Shown: in pieces, positions 3,985 to 61,979 of the stretch
Layout: each line of letters begins with the position of its first letter
Position numbering within the stretch: the first letter of the stretch is position 1
Assembly (NCBI GenBank): GCA_948470475.1
Contig: OX419341.1
Location: 16,105,542 to 16,169,541 of the forward strand
Direction: 5' to 3'
Source of the DNA: Galaxea fascicularis
Lineage: Eukaryota; Cnidaria; Anthozoa; Scleractinia; Euphylliidae
Length of the DNA: 64,000 bases
Notes under the pieces: model-generated
Seen by the model: the letters and a program-made list of their open reading frames with translations, nothing else
The model's database searches: none
What the model was told of the DNA's origin: nothing
Position numbers and translations under genes: made by a program

Positions 3985-4325
3985 ATGTTGATGATATATA
4001 TGAAATAAATCATATGAACTGCGGATGTGAAATCAAATGAACACTGATCCTCACAGTTGTGCACACAATTTAGGCAATTGCGTAAAGAAGTGTGAAAAAA
4101 AAGGGTTTGAACCCCTGACCTCACAATACCGGTGCAATGCTCTAACCAACTGAGCTAAATCCACTGACATTGAAAGCAGCTCAATTGTAGGTTCATATGT
4201 TCCTGTGAAAGAGATGAATGTGAAGGAGTTCATATATGAACTATGGATGTGAAATCAAATGAGGACTGATCCTTGCAGTTGTAAATACAAAGGCAATTTC
4301 GTAAAGAAGCCTGAAAAAATTGAGG
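3985..4325 (-). repeat. tRNA-derived SINE with a partial second copy
   Basis: A tRNA-like head (4093-4164, minus strand) continues into a body ending near 3985 with the landmark GAACTGCGGATGTGAAATCA. A second, headless copy of the same body begins near 4228 (landmark ACTATGGATGTGAAATCA) and runs to about 4325. From recall this repeat is abundant in stony coral genomes; no database check was possible. It has no coding capacity and would depend on a LINE for movement. Confidence 0.75.
4093..4164 (-). tRNA. tRNA-like SINE head (pseudo-tRNA, Thr-GGT-like)
   Basis: On the minus strand the A box TAGCTCAGTTGGTTAGAGC and B box GGGGTTCAAACCC are clear. The anticodon arm folds as a 5-bp stem with two wobble pairs around loop CCGGTAT, which would give anticodon GGT, but position 33 is C instead of T. 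The acceptor stem pairs for only about five positions and the 3' side is a T run, so this is a pol III promoter-bearing SINE head and not a working tRNA. Confidence 0.6.
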
Positions 4326-32445: not shown

Positions 32446-32881
32446 TCCCGCTATTGATCTTGTGTCACACAAGCTCCAGAATTTTTTTTTGTTTCTTTGG
32501 AGGAGTTTTGATACACCGCGGACTTGCTTTTGGCCTCTGCTTTCTGTTGCGCACTTAAAATGAAGTTAATCGCTGTATTCTACGGACTATTCTGTAAACA
32601 CTGGTATAAATTTTATTCAGATATGTCGAGTAGAACCCGAGTTAAGCAGTTTTCTACTTTGAACCTTTGATTTTTTTCCACTATTGATCTTTTTTTTGTT
32701 TCTTCGGAGGAGTTTTGATACACCGCGGACTTGCTTTTGGCCTCTGCTTTCTGTTGCGCACTTAAAATGAAGTTAATCACTGTATTCTACAGACTATTCT
32801 GTAAACACTGATATAAATTTTATTCAGATACATCGAGTAGAACCCGAGTTAAGCAGTTTTCTACTTTAAACCTTTGATGAA
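32446..32881. repeat. Tandem duplication, 207-bp unit, two copies
   Basis: GTTTCTTTGGAGGAGTTTTG at 32491 recurs as GTTTCTTCGGAGGAGTTTTG at 32698, and the copies stay about 95 percent alike to TAAGCAGTTTTCTACTTT near the end. It lies just upstream of the BEN N-terminal exon candidate, outside coding sequence. Confidence 0.85.
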
Positions 32882-42029: not shown

Positions 42030-42535
42030 TCAGCACTCTTAGCTCTTCCACATGAATTTCTTGAAATATCCTTTCAGTCATGAGGCCTTTTATTATCACA
42101 TCATCCCTGTACCATACAATCTGCAAAATACCCACTCTCCTTTATTTATTTTATTTATTTTGTTATTACTATTATTATTACTTTTTACTGATCTTTTTTC
42201 CTTTAACTCCCGTAAATTTCAATAAACGTCCAAATTGCCTCCAGATATATATGCAAATTCGAATTTTCTAAGGCGCAGGAAAACCCTTTCAGCTGGGAAT
42301 GAACACCTATAAATACCTTCGGGACTATACCCCACTAAGAGATTTTATGTACAACTGTGTATGTGTTACGTATTTATTGTTGACCAGTGTAAAAGCTTTT
42401 CCCTATGTTGTTACCTGTTACGTGTATGCATGTTTTTTAATTCACAAATATCTTGGCCTCTTAATTACGCCACTAAACTACATAGCTGCTCTCTTGACAC
42501 TCTCCTCAAAGGAACTCTAACACCTTCCTTGCACC

Positions 42536-45500
42536 ATGCGCCCTGAAGATATGGGAATTTGCTCCCTAAATGTCAGAGGTCTTTCAAACAACACCAAACG
42601 ACGAGAAACTTTTCTATGGCTGAAGAAAAAAAAGTTTTCTATTGACTTTCTGCAAGAAGTGCACAGCACAAGTGAGTCCGAACCTTACTGGCGTTCTGAA
42701 TGGGGATACTCAACCATTTTCACCACCTTTTCTAGCTCCAGAGCAGGCGTCGCCATACTGTTCAACAACAATTTCCAATTTCAAATTCAGAAGCAGATTA
42801 CTGATCCCGAGGGAAGGTTTATTATTGCAGATATAGAAACAGAAGATAGAGTTATGACGCTTGTGAATGTTTACGCGCCTAACGAGGACAACCCGACCTT
42901 TTTTAAACACGTCAGTGAAAAGCTGTCGTCTTTTGAATGTGATTTTATAGTCTTTGGTGGCGATTTTAATCTGGTCTGCGATGTTTTCAAGGACAAAAAA
43001 GGGGGCATTGCTACAACACATGCTAAGTCAAGAGATGAGGAAGAGAGTATCAAAAAAAAGTTTGAATTGACTGATATTTGGCACACCCTTAATCCTGACG
43101 CTGCGCGTTTTACATGGAGGAGGAAAAAGCCTGAGATTCATTGCCGCTTAGATTTTTTTCTTATCAGCGATTCTCTTTGCCCAGAGATTACTGGAGCCGA
43201 AATATTACCCGGTTATCGAACTGACCACTCAATGATTACAATTCTCATTACCACTGCTACCAATCCCAGAGGCCCAGGTTATTGGAAGTTAAATACACAC
43301 CTCTTAACTGAAACGGAATATGTTACCTTGATACGAAAAACTATCGCTAATGTGTCAAAGGACTATGAAGGTCAGAATGAAGTAGACGAGATTCTATTAT
43401 GGGACGTTATCAAAATGGAAATTAGATCTGCTTCCATATGTTATGCTACATCAAAGAAATGGCGTCTTAAGCATAAAGAAAATCTGTTGGAAGAAGAGGT
43501 TTCAGCGCTCGAGAAAACACTTGACGACCGTAATATATCAGATAATGTTAGGGAATGTATACAGACTGAACTAAGAATGAAGAAACAACAAATAGAAGAC
43601 ATAATCTCCTATAAAACCCAAGGTGCTATTCTAAGATCAAAAGTGAGGTGGTATAATGAAGGCGAAAAGAACACAAAATATTTTCACAGTATGGAGAAAC
43701 GACATTTTAACAGTAAAACTATTAGGAACCTTAAAATCGAAAATGACAAAAAAATTTCGACAGATTCTGAAATTTTAGATGAAGCTAAAAAGTATTATGA
43801 GTCCCTTTACATGTCTATTACAAACAGCGATGATGTCGACAATTGCGAAAATATTTTCCTCCCCGAGGTTAATGAAACAAAGTTAAGCTACAACCAGAAA
43901 GAATCTTGCGAAGGGCTTTTGTCAGAAAAAGAATGTTTTGAGAGTTTAAAAACAATGGAACCCGGTAAGTCCCCTGGTACTGATGGTATTCCAACAGAAT
44001 TTTATAAAGTGTTTTGGGACGATCTGTCACCCTTTTTACTCGCCGCTTTAAATTAAATTCATCTTTTACTCAGGGACACCTTTCCATCTCACAACGCAGA
44101 GGGTTGATAACTTTAATTCCGAAGAAAAACAAACCACTGCAACATCTAAAAAACTGGAGACCTATGAGCCTTTTGAACTGTGACTACAAAATCGCAACAA
44201 AAGCAATTGCAGCAAGAATGAAAAAAGTGCTACCTGATATAATTAACAATGATCAAACAGGCTTTCTCAAGGGTAGATCTATCAGTGAAAATGTTAGATT
44301 AATAGACAGCATAATAACCTACACAGAAACCCAGAATATCCCTGGCATTCTGCTCTTTATAGACTTCGAGAAAACCTTCAATACTTTGGAATGGAACTTC
44401 ATTGTAAGAACTCTTCGTTATTATAACTTTGGCGATTCCCTAATTACCTGGGTTAAGTTATTCTATACCGACATAAGCAGTTGCATACAAAATAATGGCT
44501 GGTCCTCCGTTTTTTCAATCTTACCAGAGGCGTTAGACAAGGATGCCCTCTATCCCCATAACTTTTCATCGTATGTGTTGAAATACTAGGCAGTGCCATA
44601 AGAAACCATGATCAAATCAAAGGTATTCGTGTTTTAGGTACAGAATGCGGATGACACCACATTAATTCTAGAAGGTTCAGATAACTCAGTGCACCAATCT
44701 TTTAACTTGTTAGATTCCTTTGCAGCTCTTTCTGGGTTAAGGGTTAATTATGAAAAAACAGAAGCTCTCTGGGTCGGCTCTTCACGCCTGCAAAGAAGGA
44801 TAATCCCTGCCTTTCAACACATTGCATGGCCTGTTCACAAGGTTAAAGCTTTAGGGGTCTGGTTTTCTACAATCAAAGGGGAATCTCTTATACTTAATTA
44901 TGAAGAAAAAAAGGAAAACATTTCTAAAATAATCGAAAATTGGCAGTTCAGAAGATTAACCCTTCTTGGGAAAATAACGGTCATTAAGAGCTTGCTCGCA
45001 TCGCAGTTAGTCTACATTATGTCCCCTCTACCTACGTCCCATCACCACCTTAAAGAAATAAGGAATGTCCTTTTCAATTTTTTATGGGATGGTAAACCCG
45101 ATAAAATTAAAAGATCAGAAATAATAAATGATTATGCAGAAGGTGGTCTTAAAATGTTGGACATTCAAAGCTTTAACCGAGCCCTTAAGGCCAAATGGAT
45201 TCAAAAATACCTAGATCCTCAGAACAAAGGAAAATGGAAATTACTGTTAGCTTTCTTCCTCAATACCCACAATATTGAACTTCTTTTGCACGGTAACCTC
45301 AATCCAGATGACGTTGTCTCTTTGGGGATTGAAGAACCCTTCACAAAAGAATTAATCGAAACTTGGTCTCGTCTTAATTTCAAAAAACAACTCTCAAACT
45401 TTGTGAGACTCCAATCTGGTACAACTCTCTTATACGCATCAACAATAAGCCCATTTACTATCGGAGCTGGTTTTCGGCAGGTATTTCCCTCGTAAGTCAC

Positions 45501-46301
45501 CTCCTGGGAGAGGATTCACTTTTTTTGGAGTTCGATACTTTCAAGGAAAAATTCGGAATGAAATCCCATTTTCTCCAGTATTACGGCGTAACTTGTGCAA
45601 TCTCGAATCTGAAATGCAAAAATTATTGTCCGCCAACGAGAGGTGTTACTACTGACACCAAAAACCTTTTGGCCTCACGAGAGTTCTGTAAGTTAGCTTA
45701 TAGAATGTTTCTAACACAAAGTACCTCTGCCCCGTGCAAAAGTCAGGGAAAATGGCTTGCAGACTGTAAAGCTCTTGGTTTCGACACGATAGACTGGAGT
45801 AAGTCGTACACGGTGGCCTTTCTATGCACCAATGAATCTAAATTACGAATCTTTCAGTTTAAACTTCTACACAGAAAATTAGCAACCAACTGTTTCCTTT
45901 TCAAAATTGGGATTGTTGCAAATGACCAGTGCACTTTCTGTAAAGCAAGCTCAGAAACTCTCCTACACCTTTTTTGGGACTGTCCTGTTGTTAAATCTTT
46001 CTGGAATGAAATTGGTATCTGGATGAGAAACAGCTCTTGCTTCCCAAATCAAGACTTCTTCTTTCTCTCTGGCATAGGCTTCGTCAACGATACTACAAAC
46101 TTGCTTTTTCACCATGCACTTTTAATTGCGAGATATCACATTTATTATTCGAAAAAAATGTCCTTTCATCCATCACGAGAATTGTTTTTTCAAATTATGT
46201 TAAATTGCCTCGACTATGAAAGACGTTATGCTGTCAAAACTGGGTCATTGACGAATTTCAATGTGAAATGGGGAGCATTTATTCGGGAAAATAACCTTTG
46301 A
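42536..46301 (+). pseudogene. LINE ORF2 (APE endonuclease plus reverse transcriptase), frameshifted
   Basis: Open 42536-44056 (506 codons): APE-type endonuclease with SLNVRGLSNNTKRR, VNVYAPNED, FGGDFNLVCD, FTWRRKKPEIHCRLDFFLIS and TDHSM, then RT start EPGKSPGTDGIPTEFYKVFW. A shift near 44050 leads to SISQRRGLITLIPKKNK, NDQTGFLKGRSISENVR and LLFIDFEKTFNTLEWNF. A shift near 44520 leads to TRGVRQGCPLSP, then an altered catalytic block QNADDTTLILEG (Tyr to Asn). 44689-45495 holds the thumb. After another shift 45525-46301 holds the C-terminal zinc knuckle CTFCKASSETLLHLFWDC. At least four lesions disable it. Domain order and ORF1 type place it in the Tx1/L1 group. Confidence 0.85.
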
Positions 46302-50162: not shown

Positions 50163-53100
50163 AGGGCTCAATAAATCGATCAAACGCCGAACCGTTTTTC
50201 GCTGGCTACACAAACAAAATCATCATGTTATGTTTTTGCAAGAATCATACTGCTCCAAAGAGCTTGAACATATCTGGGAAAACGAATGGGGTGGCAAGGC
50301 TTTCTTTAGTCACAGCACAAACCACAGTAAAGGTGTCATGATACTAATTAATCCCTCTGAATTTCAAAGTTGAAAAAGTCATTCCTGACAAACAAGGAAG
50401 GTTCATTATTCTAAAATTGTCTTTGGAAGAGAAAGTTATTGTTCTTGTCAACATTTACGCACCTAACGATGTCGCCCAACAAGTTGTTTTTTTCAAAAGA
50501 CTAAACCAACAACTTGAAGAATTCACGCAAGACACAATTGTAATTGGAGAAGACTTCAATTGCGCTCTCACCTCAAACGACAAAAGAGGCAGAAAACCTG
50601 TATCTAAAAAATCAGCGGTCATCCAGGAAATCAACACGTTGCATGAATTATATAACTTAAGTGATATATGGCGTTGCCTTAACAAAGAAAGGCAGCGTTT
50701 CACCTGGAGAACCAAATCTTTTAAAATTCAATGTCGATTAGATTTTTTCCTAGTTTCACACGAGTTAATTCAATTAGCAAAGAATTGCCACATCGTGCAT
50801 GCACCCGAATCTGATCTCTCCGCTGTGTCACTCGTTCTCCGGTCTAATCACCTAAACCAAAAAAGAGAACCTGGCTTCTGGAAATTTAATGCAACTCTAC
50901 TTCAAGACGAAGCATATGTAACAGCACTTAAGATGAACATTCCAATGTTTAAGGAAAAATACAACGAGATTCATGATTTAGGTTTAAAATGAGACCTTAT
51001 AAAAATGGAAATAAGAGGTTTTACGATCAAGTATTCTAAGCGAAAAGCAAAAAAATACCGAGATGAAGAAATATCACTGTACAAAAAAGTAAATGACCTT
51101 CAAGCTAAAGCGGAAAATAATCAGCATAACAGAGACATCATACTCAAACTTCAATGTACTAAATCACGTCTCAAAAAAATTTGGTTAATTTAAACCAAAG
51201 GCGCAATTCTAAGAAGCAAAGTGAGATGGCACGAAGAAGGAGAGCACAACACAAAGTACTTTTACAGCTTAGAAAAACGTCATCATGATATTAAATCAGT
51301 CACTCACTAAACTCAAAGTCGGGGACAATTGTTACATAAAAGATCAGTTCGAAATCTTAGGAGAAGAAAAAAAGTTTTATGAGTCGTTATATTGTTCCAC
51401 CAACACCAATCCCGAGATTTTCAAAAACTCGCCATTTTTTAACCCAGAAAACGTATCTACACTAAGTAAAGAAGAAAAGAAATCTTGCAAAGGAGTAGTA
51501 AGCGATGAGGAATGCACAAATGCGCTCAAGAACTTCGATAATAACAAAACCCCAGGCACTGATGGTCTGCCAGCTGAATTCTATCAATTCTTTTGGCCAG
51601 ACATCTGTCATGAGTTACTAGCCAGCTACAACTTTGCTTCTCAACATGGTATGCTTTCTATAAGCCAAAGACGAGGAATAATCTCGCTTATCCAAAAAAA
51701 AAAAACTATTCTGGAAAATCTAAGGCCGATCTCACTCTTAAACGTCGATTACAAGATTCTCACTAAAGTTATAGCCAAGAAAATTGAAAAAGTCTTGCCA
51801 ACTTTAATAAACCCCGATCAAACAGGTTATGTTAAAGGCCGCTACATCGGTGAAAATGTAAGGCTAATTTACGACTTGATACATTATACAGATAAACTAA
51901 ATCAAAAAGGTATTGCCGTTTTCTTGGACTTCAAAAAAGCGTTTGATTCCATTGATTGGAACTTTCTCTCAGAAGCACTTCAGCTCTTCAACTTCAGCCA
52001 TGATATTCAAAACTGGATAAAAGTTTTCTATAATAATATTACCAGCTGTGTTCTGAATAACGGTTATGCTTCCTCTTTTTTCTCCCTACAGCGGGGAGTC
52101 AGACAAGGTTGTCCTTTGTCGGGCGACCTCTTTGTTCTCGGTATAGAACTCCTTTCTAGATACACAAAAAATGATCCCACTATTAAAGGTATCCAAGTCA
52201 ACAAGCACGAGCTCAAAATAAGTCAATATGCCGACGACACAACAGTATTTGTTCGTGACCTTGACTCCGTTACAAGTCTATTAAGAGTGTTAAACGAGTT
52301 GAAAGAACATTCTGGCCTAGAAATAAACACCACTAAAACCGAAGCAATGTGGTTAGGCAAATGGAAAGACAGAACAGATGAACCATTTGGGTTTAAGTGG
52401 CCAAAAGAACCTATCAACGCCCTCGGAGTTTTCTTTTCTTACAACCAAGAAAGTGCTAACAGACTAAACTTCAGTGAAAAAAATACTTAACCTCGAGAAA
52501 ACGCTGAACACTTGGCAACGGAGAAATCTAACTCTTTATGGAAAGATTAACATAGTTAAAACAATTGGGATATCAAAATTAATTTATTCGGCTTCCGTGC
52601 TCCCTGTTCCAGATCACTACGTCCAAGAAATAAATAAGCTAATTTTCAACTTTATTTGGGCAGGATAACCCCCTAAAATCCTGACAAACACCATAATTGG
52701 AGAAAAGGAAAATGGAGGATTAAAAATGTGCAAGTTTAAGATCATGGAAAAAGCGCTCAAAATTACCTGGGTCAACAGAATCCAAGACAAGTCACAAGCC
52801 TCCTGGAAAATAATTCCTAACCAGCTCTTGTACAAATATGGTGGTCTTGCTTTCCTCACAAAATGCATCTGTATAACAGGCATACTAGACATTGATGATA
52901 AGCTTCCCACATTTTATAAAAAAGTGTTGGATTATTGGTGCAAGCTCAAAATCTCAATGGGCATCGATTCCAAAACTAATCCTAAAAACGAAATACTGTG
53001 GAATAATAGGAATATTCTAGTAGGAAAAAGGACTGTTTTTTATAAAAATTGGTATGACGCTGGCATTACCAAGATAAGCGATTTATTGAACCAAAATCAG

Positions 53101-56418: not shown

Positions 56419-56430
56419 TTTGCATAGGAA
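56419..56430. repeat. Target-site duplication, left copy (Penelope-like element)
   Basis: TTTGCATAGGAA, repeated exactly at 59184-59195. Confidence 0.85.
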
Positions 56431-56431
56431 A

Positions 56432-56623
56432 TAAGCGTATAAAAGGCTCCTTTTTGCAACACTAGATCACCCCTGATGAAGACACTAGACAGGAGTGTCG
56501 AAACGTTGGGTCGTGAATTGTAACTTTTTAAGTTACATTCATCAAACTTCAAACCAGAGTAGCATCAAACCATGTCTGATTGTCCACCTGGTTGCAGTGT
56601 GAACTTGAACATACCTTATTTGC
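56432..56623 (+). repeat. 5' pseudo-LTR of the Penelope-like element
   Basis: Begins TAAGCGTATAAAAGG (TATAAAAGG is a possible TATA box at 56438-56446), contains the hammerhead motif, the small palindrome GTAACTTTTTAAGTTAC at 56519-56535, and runs through the first 17 codons of the ORF. Confidence 0.9.
56469..56511 (+). ncRNA. Hammerhead ribozyme motif, 5' copy (stem-III-less type)
   Basis: Core CTGATGA (56473-56479), stem II GACACT/AGTGTC (56481-56486 with 56494-56499) around loop AGACAGG, then GAAA (56500-56503). Stem I is ACCC (56469-56472) with GGGT (56508-56511). Between GAA and stem I only ACGTT remains, so stem III has no loop in a monomer. ACGT is self-complementary, so two copies could pair. 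Predicted cleavage follows T56507. Such loop-less variants in Penelope-like elements are known to act as dimers. Confidence 0.8.
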
Positions 56624-58992
56624 GAGAAAAATATGGTCAAACTGTTGTTAAAAGAGTCCACCGACTTGCTAACATCAAAGTCCGTATTGCCAAGTATCGC
56701 AGTCGTTTGTTTTTCAACCACCGGTGCAAGGAAAATAAAGTGCTTCCACCGAGTTTGAGATTCCGGCCTCCTATACGGAGTGTCAAGGGATACAAGCTCA
56801 TGGAAAACACTGGTTTTTCTTTCCTGAGGTTGCGGATTGACCAATGTCACCAGTTTATACAGAGTTTAAGTTCCTTGTTCTCTCGTTCACTCAGTGAACT
56901 CTCTGCTTTGATTGACCACTCCGAAATCGCTTGGGTCGAGGAGTTTTGTTGTTCGAAAGAGCAACAGACGTCTATCAAACAGAGAGAGAGACATGACAAA
57001 AAACTCCGCCTTCTGTTCAGTAAGAAGTCTCCTGATAACTCAGGTTCGACTCTGAAAGATAAATGGGTCTTGAACCTTTCTTCTAAGGAGTTATCTGCGT
57101 TGGAACGGAGTGGTTTGGAAAAAGGCCTCAAGTTTGCTGTTGCTCCCAGCAAAATACCAACTGCTGAGATCATCGCTGCCGTCGAGGAAGGTATTTCTCG
57201 ACTCAACGTCGATCAAAAGCATTTGATAAGAGCTGAAGTTAGTAGCATTCTTAGGCGCGCCAAACCGCCTCCCAAAAACATCAGCAATGATGTTTTCAAG
57301 GCGCTCCTAGCTCTTAAGAAAGATCCGGATAGGCTTGTTTTATCTGCTGACAAGGGCAACTGTGTCGTGGTTATGGATAAACAACAATACGATGAAAAGG
57401 CCTCCTCTCTGCTAAGTGACAGGAATACGTATTCTATCTTAAATTCTGATCCTACCAGCAAGACTCAGAGAAAGCTCAACAAAATGTTACTTGATTTGAA
57501 AAAAGCTGGAAAGATTAGTGAGTCTACGTACAAAATGTTATACAGTAGTGACGGTCTATGTCCTCGTTTTTATGGCTTGCCTAAAATCCATAAGACGGGA
57601 ATTCCTTTGAGACCCATTGTCTCTTTTGTTAATTCTCCGACTTATGCGGTTTCGAGTTATCTCGCGAAAATCTTGTCACCTGTTGTTGGGAATACTGATT
57701 ACACTGTCAAAAATTCCTGTGACTTTGCGGATTTTATAAGAGGTAAAACTCTTGACGCAGGAAACGAGTTGGTTTCTTTCGACGTGGTTTCCCTCTTCAC
57801 CAAAATTCCGGTTGATCTTGCCATTAGTGTTGCTGAAAAAAGACTCAAACAAGACGCTTCATTGGGACAAAGAACTTCTTTGCCCGTGGAGGATCTTATA
57901 GATTTGCTGTCTTTTTGTCTCAACACCACTCAGTTCGCATACAATGGCACCTACTACCAACAGGTTTTTGGTACGGCTATGGGTTCTCCCGTTTCTGCTG
58001 TCATTGCCAACATGGTAATGGAAGATGTGGAACAAAGGGCTCTGGTTTCCTCACCGATCCAGCCTTTGTTTTGGAAACGATATGTCGACGATGTCATCTC
58101 TGCGGTATCCGGAAATGAAGCGGAGCGCCTTCTTTCACATTTAAATTCAGTTGAGCCGTCTATCCAGTTCACCATTGAGCGTGAGAATGATAGACGTTTG
58201 TCTTTTCTCGATTTGAATGTCTATAGGGCGCACCGGGGAAATTAAGAGACAAGTGTTTATCGCAAACCCACGCATACCGACAAATATCTCGCATTTGACT
58301 CCCACCACCCCATCTGCCACAAAAAATCCGTAACCAGAACCTTGCTCACGAGGGCTGATTGTTTGCCATCTTCATGTGATTCTAGGGCCAAAGAGCGAAA
58401 ATATGTTTTTGACGTCCTAAAGGTCAATGGCTACCCAAACACTTTCCTTCGTAACTGCTTAAAACCAGTTACTCCTTCTCTTAACACCTCCGGGGACGAG
58501 GTTTCGGCTACAGGTTTTGCCGTCATCCCGTACATCCGCGGTGTTACAGAACCCATTAAGAGAGTTTTGTCTAGCCACAATGTCAAAGTTGCACAAAAAC
58601 CTTTTCAGACGTTGAGTCATATTTTTGCCAAACCTAAGGATCCTGTGTTGAAAGAACAACGAACTGACGCTGTTTATTCTATTCCATGCAATGACTGTGA
58701 TCATGAGTACATCGGACAGACCAAGCGTCAGCTTGGCACGCGTTTAAAAGAGCATCAAAAAGCAGTTTTTCTTTGCAAAAAGGAAAATTCCGCTTTGTCG
58801 GAACATGCTTGCCAAACCAACCATACAATAGCGTGGGATAATTCCAAAATTATCACCACTAACCGGCGGTACCATCAACGGCTTTGTTTGGAAGCTTGGC
58901 ACATCAACTCCGCCCACGCTCCTTTAAACCGTGACGATGGCGGCCTTTTACCTGACACCTATTTACACCTCATCAAAACAAAAGGTCGTTAA
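56572..58992 (+). pseudogene. Penelope RT plus GIY-YIG endonuclease, one in-frame stop
   Basis: From ATG at 56572 one frame of 806 codons runs to TAA at 58990, broken only by TAA at 58243 (codon 558). Residues 1-240 are a helical N-terminal part. RT follows with SADKGNCVVVMDKQQYD near 260, YGLPKIHKTGIPLRPIVS near 340, ELVSFDVVSLFTKIPVDLA near 400, TAMGSPVSAVIANMVMEDVE near 470 and the catalytic KRYVDDVI (YVDD at 504). After the stop come YRKPTHTDKYL and the GIY-YIG nuclease: VYSIPCNDCDHEY near 701 and YIGQTKRQLGTRLKEH near 713, with a Cys pair. Normal Penelope length is about 800 residues, so nothing else is missing. The protein nicks DNA and primes reverse transcription on telomere-like or broken ends. 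Confidence 0.9.
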
Positions 58993-58996
58993 TTAG

Positions 58997-59188
58997 TAAG
59001 CGTATAAAAGGCTCCTTTTTGCAACACTAGATCACCCCTGATGAAGACACTAGACAGGAGTGTCGAAACGTTGGGTCGTGAATTGTAACTTTTTAAGTTA
59101 CATTCATCAAACTTCAAACCAGAGTAGCATCAAACCATGTCTGATTGTCCACCTGGTTGCAGTGTGAACTTGAACATACCTTATTTGC
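58997..59188 (+). repeat. 3' pseudo-LTR of the Penelope-like element
   Basis: Same 192 bases as 56432-56623, ending within codon 17 of what would be a second ORF, where it merges with the right target duplication. Confidence 0.9.
59034..59076 (+). ncRNA. Hammerhead ribozyme motif, 3' copy
   Basis: Identical to the 5' copy: ACCC, CTGATGA (59038-59044), stem II GACACT/AGTGTC, GAAA, ACGTT, GGGT. Spacing between the two motifs is 2565 bases, so a transcript spanning both could form an intramolecular ribozyme dimer and release a unit-length RNA. Confidence 0.8.
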
Positions 59189-59195
59189 ATAGGAA
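59184..59195. repeat. Target-site duplication, right copy (Penelope-like element)
   Basis: TTTGCATAGGAA, identical to 56419-56430. Confidence 0.85.
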
Positions 59196-59753
59196 CTTCG
59201 CAATATCGATTATTATAGTTCAAATCTATCAGACTGATGCGTACTTCCAGGGAAACTGCCAACCACTTGTTTTGGAAAGCCGATCTTTAACACTTTTTCA
59301 AGCTAACTGAAACAAACATGTCATGTAACGATTGACGGGCTTAAATCCTCTCTGTTCGTGACATACAATCTAGGGAATCATAGTGACACCCAAAAATGGC
59401 CGGTAAAGTTCCGGGATTTTCGTGAAACTGGCCCCTGGTCCTGCAAACCTAGAGGAATGACAGTTGAGAAACGTTGTTTGACGGTCCAGATATCATAGCT
59501 GAGCTAAAGTCAACATATTTGTGTGGCTTTATACTTAAGTAATTCGGATATTTTGAATTTAGCTGACTTAATTGTTTGGTCACGCATTCGTGATTTTTAA
59601 TTTTTTTGACTAGTGCTTAATCATTTGCCCGAACTAAACTTTGCATATATTGAAAGACCTATCCTTATATAGTTAGAATCTAAAATCTTTTGGAATTCCC
59701 AGATATGGCACATGACCAAAATGACCATTCTTTTCACCAACCGACGAACTCAT

Positions 59754-60366
59754 CAGAAAATTATTCATTCCTCTCCACCACCCCTCCCCGTTCAAAAATG
59801 CATTACCTTAATGCCTAAAAAGACAGCAGCATGTCCTTGCACTTAACGTTTACTATTTCCACACTCCAGTCGGAGCAAGATGTGCTTGCAGCAGAGGAAC
59901 AATTGTATTTTTCTATGGCAAGAGACTCTGTGCTTTCGTCCCTTCATATCCAGCACCATATTGTTGTAGACTAGTACGATCTGTGCGCTCTGGTCAAAAG
60001 CAACAAGATTAGAAAGCTAAAAGTGGGACTACTGCAGCTGCTATGTGAGAACTTCGAGCTAGAAGTGCCAAGCCCAGCGCGAAGCAAAGCGCCATACATA
60101 GCCCGCCTTCAAGAACTAGTAGAGAGTTGCCCTTGTTCTTTAAAATGAAAGGCCCTGTCAGAAATGAAAGCACTTTTTGTCCCTTTTGTATTTTTTGGGG
60201 GGCCTTCACAAACGAAGACTTGAACTTTTCAACAAAATACACCGGGCTACCTGGAGTGTCGAAATAGTAAATGTTAAGTGCGAGGACATGCTGCTGTCTT
60301 TTTAGGCATTAAGGTAATGCATTTTTGAAGGGGGAGGGGTGGTGGAGAGGAATGAACAATTTTCTG
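59754..60366. mobile_element. Foldback-type element with 115-bp inverted arms
   Basis: 59754-59868 and 60252-60366 are inverted copies with a handful of differences; landmarks are CCTCTCCACCACCCCTCCCC, GCATTACCTTAATGCC and GACAGCAGCATGTCC. The 383-bp interior has no transposase. The target duplication was not resolved. Confidence 0.85.
59972..60148 (+). CDS. SAP-like small frame inside the foldback element
   Basis: After a TAG, 57 codons run to TGA at 60146: LCALVKSNKIRKLKVGLLQL, LCENFELEVPSPARSKAP, YIARLQELVESCPCSLK. The helix-loop-helix L..LC..F.LEVP....K..YIARL.EL resembles a SAP-type DNA-binding motif, which is frequent at the start of repeat-encoded proteins. No ATG, so it would be an internal exon or a remnant. 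Confidence 0.3.
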
Positions 60367-61979
60367 AACAGCAATTTTTGTCAGCAGAGCTTTCAGAAAT
60401 AGTACCTTCCGTTACATCTCCTTAGTTAATTGTACAGATTATTCTTCTACCCACATACCCTATGAAAAAATGCCAAGTCCAATGTTCCTACTCCTTTGCC
60501 TTTGCCAGTCCTTTACCCCTCCCCCCTACAAGCAATCGTTGTATAAAAGCTGAAGCGAGCAAACAGTCCTACACACAATTATATTGGAACTGAAGTATCG
60601 TTTTGTTTGATACAGAAAGAGGCGTATTCATCAAATGGGATCACTGGAGTCACAGTGAATAAGTTTAAAATCGTCGGAATAACTTCATGGAATTTGTCAC
60701 AGTTTCACTTTATAATAACACAAGAGCAATTAGCGATCGCGATGTAATATGTAATGGCCTACAACACTTGATTATTGCGGATCTCTTCCAAGCTTTGGCT
60801 CCTTCGCTGCATGGGCATGCATACATGACAAGGTGAAATATCTATTTTAATCTTTTCTATTTCAGCTATTCGACTTGAACACTGTTGCAAAATTTTTGTC
60901 ATGAATGAAATCGTCTCCGAGAGACGTTGTTTTCGTAAATCTTAAGGTCAACGTCACGCAATTACGTTTCCCTTTTGGGATAAATCACAGCAATGTTTCT
61001 GCACCCCAAGACGGTGGCTAAGTAGGAATTTAACATGTATCACAACATCATAACTTTAAAAAGGTTTTAGATGAAGAAAAAGAAGCAGTTTAGAACGAGC
61101 TTGAAAGGTCACTTGGACTGAATGGCCATGCCGATCGGCATCGAGTTACATTTAATACTTCGCCACCTACTTTGACCTTGTTAATTAAAATGTTGAAGGT
61201 TATCGCTCTCAGACAGTTTGAAAACAGTATGTAAACTTATCATCGCGCAGAATGGTGCGACACATCCGGGACCTTATTTAGTCTCAAGCGCGAAATTTGA
61301 AAAGGCATCGGCAGACAAAAGCCTCTACAAAGAAAATGGGGCAAAATGTTTAAATACAGTATACATTTTGCTCCAATGCGAAAAACTAAACCATTTTAGC
61401 GGTTAGGTTTACCCCGGCTTCTTCAGTAGAGATGTTAAGGAACCATTTGAGACCCTTTAGACCTTTCTTGGCCTTGGAAAAGTGATATAAAAATGAGCCT
61501 CTAAATTCGAGTTTTTCGCTTCTTTTAGTATGGGGAAACCACCTCATTAACATTCAAGATGGTTTTCTTGCTCAGTTCTGGATTCCTTTGCCTAGGTTTA
61601 CCAGGGGAAAGTAAGCCTTAAATCTAAGCTAGAGCTGTGCAAAATTTGGAGTTAATACGAAGCGTGGAAGTTGTATAAAAACAATGATTTCCAGAAGCTG
61701 GTCCGTAAACACGAAAATGCGCCCAGAAACCACTTGTCCTAAAACCCCCAGGAGACATTAAAGCAAGCAAAAACTCCTCCCCCCAAAAACAATGGAACTA
61801 ACTTTAACTACTAATCCATTGTTTTCGCATAGATTGAAATTTACCGCGCGTATTTAAATTCAATAGACCGCAAAAGTGTTACCAAATGATGAATTAAAAG
61901 TATAAATCGTGGAAATCGCTTAGCTCTTTACACAACAGCTATTTCCACGTGTTGATCAGGTCACCCAAAGTTACAAAAA
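60367..61979. other. Stretch without recognised gene
   Basis: No frame above about 62 codons and none with a motif. Confidence 0.5.

What the first reader, a model, noticed from the sequence alone, without database searches (positions are those of the whole stretch)
56431..59195. Nearly intact Penelope-like element with ribozyme-bearing terminal repeats
The copy has apparently identical 192-bp pseudo-LTRs, a perfect 12-bp TSD and one stop in an 806-codon RT/GIY-YIG frame. Each repeat carries the same stem-III-less hammerhead. Loop-less hammerheads of Penelope-like elements are established as dimer-acting ribozymes. What is worth testing here is that the two motifs lie in one putative transcript and could form the dimer in cis, releasing a unit-length RNA starting at GGGTCGTG.
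Basis: partly seen in the sequence, partly recalled or inferred. Interest (0 to 1): 0.78.

Follow-up and report, generated by a model that had tools for sequence, protein, structure and literature searches.

The report
Coral retrotransposon with in-vivo-active ribozyme
This is an ordinary-looking Penelope-like jumping gene, but many of its relatives in the same genome begin exactly where its tiny RNA enzyme is predicted to cut, which suggests that the enzyme works in the living animal and that the cut RNA is copied back into DNA.

Summary
Window 56432-59188 is an endonuclease-bearing Penelope-like element with identical 192-bp pseudo-LTRs, a perfect 12-bp TSD, one stop in an 806-codon RT/GIY-YIG frame and a stem-III-less hammerhead in each repeat. 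Such elements, and dimer-acting hammerheads in them, are known.

What is new comes from the host genome (416.6 Mb; relatives point to a stony coral). Among copies of this family, 5' truncation points pile up at the predicted scissile bond U56507^G56508. In the discovery set 13 of 51 mapped ends (12 loci) fall in 3 of 118 nt, about 1 expected, P about 1e-9. In a held-out set 6 of 32 halves (4 loci) do. Ten of 14 such loci with flanks examined have 8-13-bp TSDs. The simplest reading is run-off reverse transcription of hammerhead-cleaved RNA in vivo. A held review calls the role of these ribozymes a mystery.

The cis-dimer step is not shown. RT starts lie 3' of the cut, so a linear cut RNA can give only about 72- or 108-bp inserts; those exist. 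This copy crosses both sites intact, so its template was uncut or circular.

The parts
56419..56430 (.). left target-site duplication TTTGCATAGGAA
   Evidence: sequence
56432..56623 (+). left pseudo-LTR (unit 1-192), identical to the right one
56438..56445 (+). TATAAAAG box (unit 7-14); promoter inferred
   Evidence: sequence; a small cluster of 5' ends of copies lies downstream
56464..56466 (+). inferred transcription start (unit 33-35), at the first bases of hammerhead stem I
   Evidence: 5' ends at unit 31-35: 5 against 1.65 expected, P 0.019; L052 and L180 also start at 35
56465..56515 (+). hammerhead 1: stem I GATCACCC/GGGTCGTG, core CTGATGA, stem II GACACT/AGTGTC, GAAA, loop-less stem III ACGT
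56507..56508 (+). predicted scissile bond 1 (unit 76^77); hot spot of 5' ends in other copies
56579..56579 (+). inferred RT start site 1, tail-less 3' end (unit about 148)
   Evidence: 3' ends of copies
56615..56615 (+). inferred RT start site 2, tailed 3' end (unit about 184, GAACATACC)
56572..58992 (+). ORF, 806 codons with one in-frame stop at 58243-58245; RT then GIY-YIG endonuclease
58997..59188 (+). right pseudo-LTR
59030..59080 (+). hammerhead 2, same sequence
59072..59073 (+). predicted scissile bond 2 (unit 2641^2642)
   Evidence: sequence
59184..59195 (.). right target-site duplication

Best explanation
A recently active endonuclease-positive Penelope-like retrotransposon. Transcripts start at the pseudo-LTR promoter (inferred, unit 33-35) and so begin with hammerhead stem I. 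In vivo the stem-III-less hammerhead cuts a fraction of the RNA at U76^G77 (inferred from footprints), most likely as a dimer of two motifs in cis or in trans (known chemistry from cited papers, not tested here). The element's RT, primed on nicked target DNA, starts at about unit 148 or 184 (inferred from 3' ends). On cut RNA it runs off at G77 and leaves stubs of about 72 or 108 bp; on uncut RNA it runs on into the ORF. Cutting would therefore limit full-length insertion, or act in RNA processing, rather than make the linear template of this full copy.
For: Discovery set on C1-C2: 116 halves walked, 83 with a mapped 5' end, 51 of these in unit 1-118, 13 of 51 at 75-77 in 12 loci, 0.99 expected, Poisson 6e-11 by halves and 8e-10 by loci. 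Held-out set outside the discovery stretch: 32 halves, 6 at 75-77 in 4 loci, 3 at other points of 27-74, P 5e-8 by halves and 4e-5 by loci. TSD of 8-13 bp at L058, L059, L060, L062, L063, L091, L122, L174, with up to 8 filler bases between TSD and insert, and by eye at L081 and L175. Flanks read differ from one another, so these are separate insertions. In L059, L174 and L175 both head-to-head halves end there. Whole-genome counts of 29-mers with at most 1 mismatch: unit 119-147 677, 77-105 580, 73-101 494, i.e. 2.3 copies lost per nt against 21.5 per nt across the site. In 7 hammerheads of other families in this genome stem II has at least 3 pairs in 6 and stem I at least 5 pairs in register in 4, with partly different letters.
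Against: All footprint evidence is DNA; no RNA end was seen. 4 of the 14 peak loci examined with flanks show no TSD (L100, L110, L115, L117); L178 and L182 were fetched too short to tell. Four ends at unit 72-73 in the discovery set and one at 73 in the held-out set (L184) lie just upstream of the bond and are not explained by run-off at 77; L051 ends at 79 and 82. PMC11167929 reports for the anole element that hammerhead mutants did not change insertion in vitro, that cleavage needed the protein, and that no RNA-seq read began or ended at the site. The whole-genome count step adds a CpG, so decay may explain part of it, and the planned control pattern did not complete. No second abundant family was found to repeat the test. 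In 3 of 7 other families stem I fits poorly and in 1 stem II does.
Confidence: 0.78

Rival explanations
1. Cis-dimer and circle route: the two motifs of one transcript pair, release the 2565-nt unit, a host ligase closes it, and RT runs more than one lap, which makes the pseudo-LTRs and tandems.
For: Cleavage footprint as above. Two tandem units and an inverted unit at C1:4.2 Mb are identical to each other (0 of 2565) yet differ from the window unit at 17 sites; both pLTRs of L042 share one base that differs from the window. Six of nine copies that reach or nearly reach the upstream pLTR start extend past the inferred start site (window, L040, L041, L042, L043, L055; not L037, L051, L052; L040 and L041 are one locus).
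Against: A linear transcript of a tandem or partial-tandem donor gives the same structures. A fragment upstream of the tandem at C1:4.2 Mb differs at 1 of 143. No circle was looked for in RNA. Most templates that reached the site were uncut (85 of 98 halves pass it).
Confidence: 0.2
2. RT pauses at the folded uncut hammerhead; no cleavage.
For: The motif folds as a hairpin in prediction (-17.2 kcal/mol).
Against: A pause should fall 3' of the stem (about unit 85-90), where there are only scattered single ends (83, 87, 89); the peak is on the scissile bond itself.
Confidence: 0.1
3. A host or element nuclease cuts the RNA at this bond.
For: In PMC11167929 cleavage needed the element protein.
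Against: There endonuclease mutants still cut while hammerhead core mutants did not; the bond here is the one the hammerhead rule predicts.
Confidence: 0.07
4. The hammerhead is an inert relic in this family.
For: No RNA evidence; PMC11167929 found no reads at the site in anole.
Against: Peak of ends, replicated. 108 of 141 motif readings are identical, but these come from overlapping loci and the pattern itself demands most of the core, so this is weak.
Confidence: 0.04

Closest known systems
Endonuclease-positive Penelope-like elements (Anolis Poseidon, PMC11167929; Adineta vaga, PMC3846280)
   Same: single RT then GIY-YIG ORF, pLTRs reaching into the ORF, optional tail, inverted copies, internal RT start, short TSD; hammerhead in the pLTR (anole)
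   Different: here ends of genomic copies mark the hammerhead bond; in the anole no reads ended there. The hammerhead lies wholly upstream of the start codon here; in the anole the ORF begins at stem II.
Loop-less PLE hammerheads cleaving as dimers (Cervera and de la Pena 2014; Lunse et al. 2017)
   Same: type I core, missing stem III loop with palindromic ACGT, stems I and II
   Different: papers not held, known from citations and reviews; no cleavage assay here
R2 elements with HDV-like ribozyme (PMC3774820, passages)
   Same: 5' junctions of genomic copies reflect the self-cleavage site
   Different: other ribozyme, at the 5' end, whose cut makes the full template; here the cut lies just 5' of the RT start and gives stubs
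Retrozymes (PMC4918200, listing only; PMC7229834, passages)
   Same: hammerhead in repeats, possible circular RNA
   Different: non-autonomous and short; no circle was tested here

Membership tests
Penelope-like element, EN+ | RT followed by GIY-YIG endonuclease in one ORF | tested here: met
   one in-frame stop; both Pfam scores of the window pieces below the curated cut-off
Penelope-like element, EN+ | pseudo-LTRs in tandem or partial tandem, inverted copies, TSD | tested here: met
Penelope-like element, EN+ | internal RT start giving an optional tail | tested here: met
   two 3' end clusters, about 147 and 184; 27 of 29 classifiable head-to-head inserts have one of each (31 loci listed)
Penelope-like element, EN+ | RT phylogeny within the PLE clade | not tested
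   protein search only: 1884 hits among 7987 scored candidates; best 96% over 86%, best full-length 72%; no tree built
Loop-less PLE hammerhead | conserved core and stems I, II; stem III lacking a loop | tested here: met
   one mismatch inside stem I; no Rfam hit
Loop-less PLE hammerhead | self-cleavage as a dimer in vitro | not testable with these tools
   no bench assay
Retrozyme | small non-coding circular RNA intermediate | not testable with these tools
   no RNA data; the element is coding and 2.7 kb
R2-like 5' end formation by ribozyme | 5' junctions of genomic copies at the self-cleavage site | tested here: met
   for a minority of copies only

The most novel reading that the evidence does not exclude
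In Penelope-like elements both reverse transcriptases of one insertion copy the same RNA from two start sites 36 nt apart, and hammerhead cleavage of that RNA decides between stub and full insertion; cleaved units closed into circles are the source of the tandem pseudo-LTR structure.
Probability: 0.15. Interest if true: 0.85.

Novelty: new member of a known kind. Interest (0 to 1): 0.6.

Why it matters
A held review (PMC6155905, passages) says all available PLE sequences carry hammerheads, and another (PMC7761336, passages) says their in vivo activity and role are still a mystery. The one biochemical study held (PMC11167929) found no reads at the site. The pile-up of insertion ends on the scissile bond is, as far as my searches of the held library show, the first in vivo trace of cleavage and of cleaved RNA being reverse transcribed in a PLE; RNA preprocessing by the hammerhead had been suggested (PMC6431247, passages). 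It turns the question into a simple genomic test for any species with a young PLE family.

Tried and rejected
Rfam hammerhead models give no hit. Viral-contig scans for the motif (no match) and for PLE proteins (8 and 6 stretches matched a pattern, none confirmed) gave nothing. Search for a second abundant hammerhead family to repeat the footprint: only 8, 7 and 16 matches, several of them this same family, so no replicate family. Covariation inside the family was not seen among the motif variants; between families stems I and II change on both sides at some pairs, but L185, L186 and L188 fit stem I poorly and L191 stem II. Secondary-structure prediction of monomer and dimer favours folds that are not the hammerhead and is not informative. 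Ungapped walking gave 15 of 78 ends at 75-77, both L076 halves among them; gapped walking and the sequence showed one at 80 and the other an insertion at the site, so both were dropped. Snap-back priming as origin of head-to-head inserts: disfavoured because the two ends carry different RT start points and a TSD.

Full report
Observation. Window 56432-59188 has two identical 192-nt direct repeats, a 12-bp TSD at 56419-56430 and 59184-59195, an 806-codon frame with one stop and RT and GIY-YIG regions (the Pfam scores of the window's own pieces lie below the curated cut-offs). Each repeat holds one hammerhead core. Stock Rfam models do not see it.

Host and family. The window lies in a 416.6-Mb genome. 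Named protein relatives include the stony corals Pocillopora, Montipora and Oculina, besides fish, amphioxus and a tick, so a coral is inferred, species unknown. A 29-mer of the repeat has 677 places with at most one mismatch. In one search (40 of 419 candidates scored) 15 rows cover the ORF start or nearly so, a lower bound. The copies fetched for a full repeat match, chosen as best matches, are mostly 97-100% identical to the window; those printed are mostly 93-100%.

Anatomy from many copies. 3' ends fall in two clusters, about unit 147 and unit 184; some ends lie elsewhere, in part through indels. They resemble the two adjacent internal RT starts and the tail reported for the anole element (PMC11167929, parts 1, 2 and 4 of 4 read). 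Of 31 head-to-head loci listed, 29 could be classified: 27 have one tailed and one tail-less end (L037 and L048 counted so by one of two rows), L044 has two tailed, L097 two tail-less; L071 and L008/L043 were left out. The start of transcription is inferred at unit 33-35 from a small cluster of 5' ends (5 against 1.65 expected at 31-35, P 0.019), downstream of TATAAAAG. The hammerhead's first stem thus opens the RNA.

The cleavage footprint. I listed the places of unit 77-105 (580 in the genome, the first 100 listed, all exact, on C1 and C2). I fetched 76 of those 100. Of the other 24, 20 lie in stretches already fetched and continue upstream, and 4 were judged to do so from their spacing to a fetched half or unit. 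I added 31 regions for copies listed with unit 119-147 but not 77-105. Gapped walking gave 116 halves, 83 with a mapped 5' end, 51 of these in unit 1-118. 13 of the 51, in 12 loci, end at 75-77, where 0.99 are expected. The best 3-nt windows clear of the peak hold 4 (unit 71-74 and 32-34). T76 and T75 can match flanks by chance, so 75-77 is taken as one site. Of 98 halves that reached the site, 13 stop there; with the 24 other places it is about 11%. I then tested a held-out set. An exact 48-mer has 44 places: 9 belonged to the discovery stretch, 3 were already fetched, and 32 lay outside (C2 end and C3-C14). 6 of 32 halves, in 4 loci, end at 75-77, and 3 elsewhere in 27-74. Whole-genome counts agree: 677, 580, 494 for windows starting at 119, 77 and 73, though a CpG in the added bases may contribute and the intended control did not complete.

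These are insertions. Ten of the 14 peak loci with flanks have 8-13-bp TSDs at the insert, some with up to 8 filler bases: eight by script, L081 and L175 by eye. L062 is the cleanest: TSD, GGGTCGTG to CATACC, TSD. Four have none found. L178 and L182 were fetched too short. In L059, L174 and L175 both halves end at the site. L076 has 15 A/T bases inserted exactly between T76 and G77.

Mechanism. An RT stop by structure should lie 3' of the stem, where no peak exists. Run-off on RNA cut at the predicted bond explains the position to the base. Because both RT starts lie 3' of the cut, cut linear RNA yields only stubs. The window copy contains both bonds, so its template was uncut, or a circle copied for more than one lap. 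Tandem units at one locus are identical but differ from the window at 17 sites, which fits a circle or a tandem donor equally. Whether the two motifs pair in cis or in trans cannot be told from DNA.

A further regularity. In head-to-head inserts the two 5' ends coincide within 35 nt in 6 of 16 (1.0 expected by shuffling, P 5.5e-5), and in 16 of 19 small inserts (6.8 expected, P 1e-5; this set is biased to short halves). The positions were typed by hand; unclear or cut-off loci (L037, L042-L044, L048, L049, L040/L041, L071, L076, L097) were left out, and the end class of the far halves of L015 and L016 is assumed. In the small set the tail-less half reaches further in 11 of 16, the tailed in 3. 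Both halves copied from one RNA would explain this. It is a lead, not a result.

Known and new. The element is a new member of a known kind. Ribozyme-defined 5' junctions are known for R2 (PMC3774820, passages read). For PLEs I found no report in the held library (searches; passages of PMC7761336, PMC6155905, PMC7229834, PMC6466107, PMC6431247, PMC11722881, PMC3846280 read). The two key hammerhead papers, the Terminon paper and a Penelope promoter paper are not held, so priority is not certain.

Noticed in passing
L031, L032, L035, L046, L047, L050 and others: Head-to-head inverted inserts carry one tailed (unit 184) and one tail-less (unit 148) end in 27 of 29 classifiable cases.
   Followed up: partly
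L007, L010, L022, L035, L036, L039: The two halves of one insert often end at nearly the same RNA position; in small inserts the tail-less half mostly reaches further.
   Followed up: partly
L076: 15 A/T bases inserted exactly at the hammerhead bond of a repeat whose other parts read intact in the stretch printed.
   Followed up: no
L041 3103-8379: Tandem of two identical 2565-nt units with three pLTRs, 17 differences from the window unit.
   Followed up: partly
L057: Two ORF copies head to head, both starting at unit 184, the RT start site.
   Followed up: no
window 42521-46301 and 50348-52490: Probably two broken LINE-like elements: endonuclease/phosphatase domain with zf-RVT, and endonuclease domain with RVT_1.
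   Followed up: no
window 59753-59869 and 60251-60367: 117-bp inverted repeat arms, 96% alike, just downstream of the element.
   Followed up: no
window 14404-14645 and 32483-32878: Tandem repeats of 43-bp and 207-bp units.
   Followed up: no
window 4093-4164, minus strand: tRNA model hit, 34 bits.
   Followed up: no
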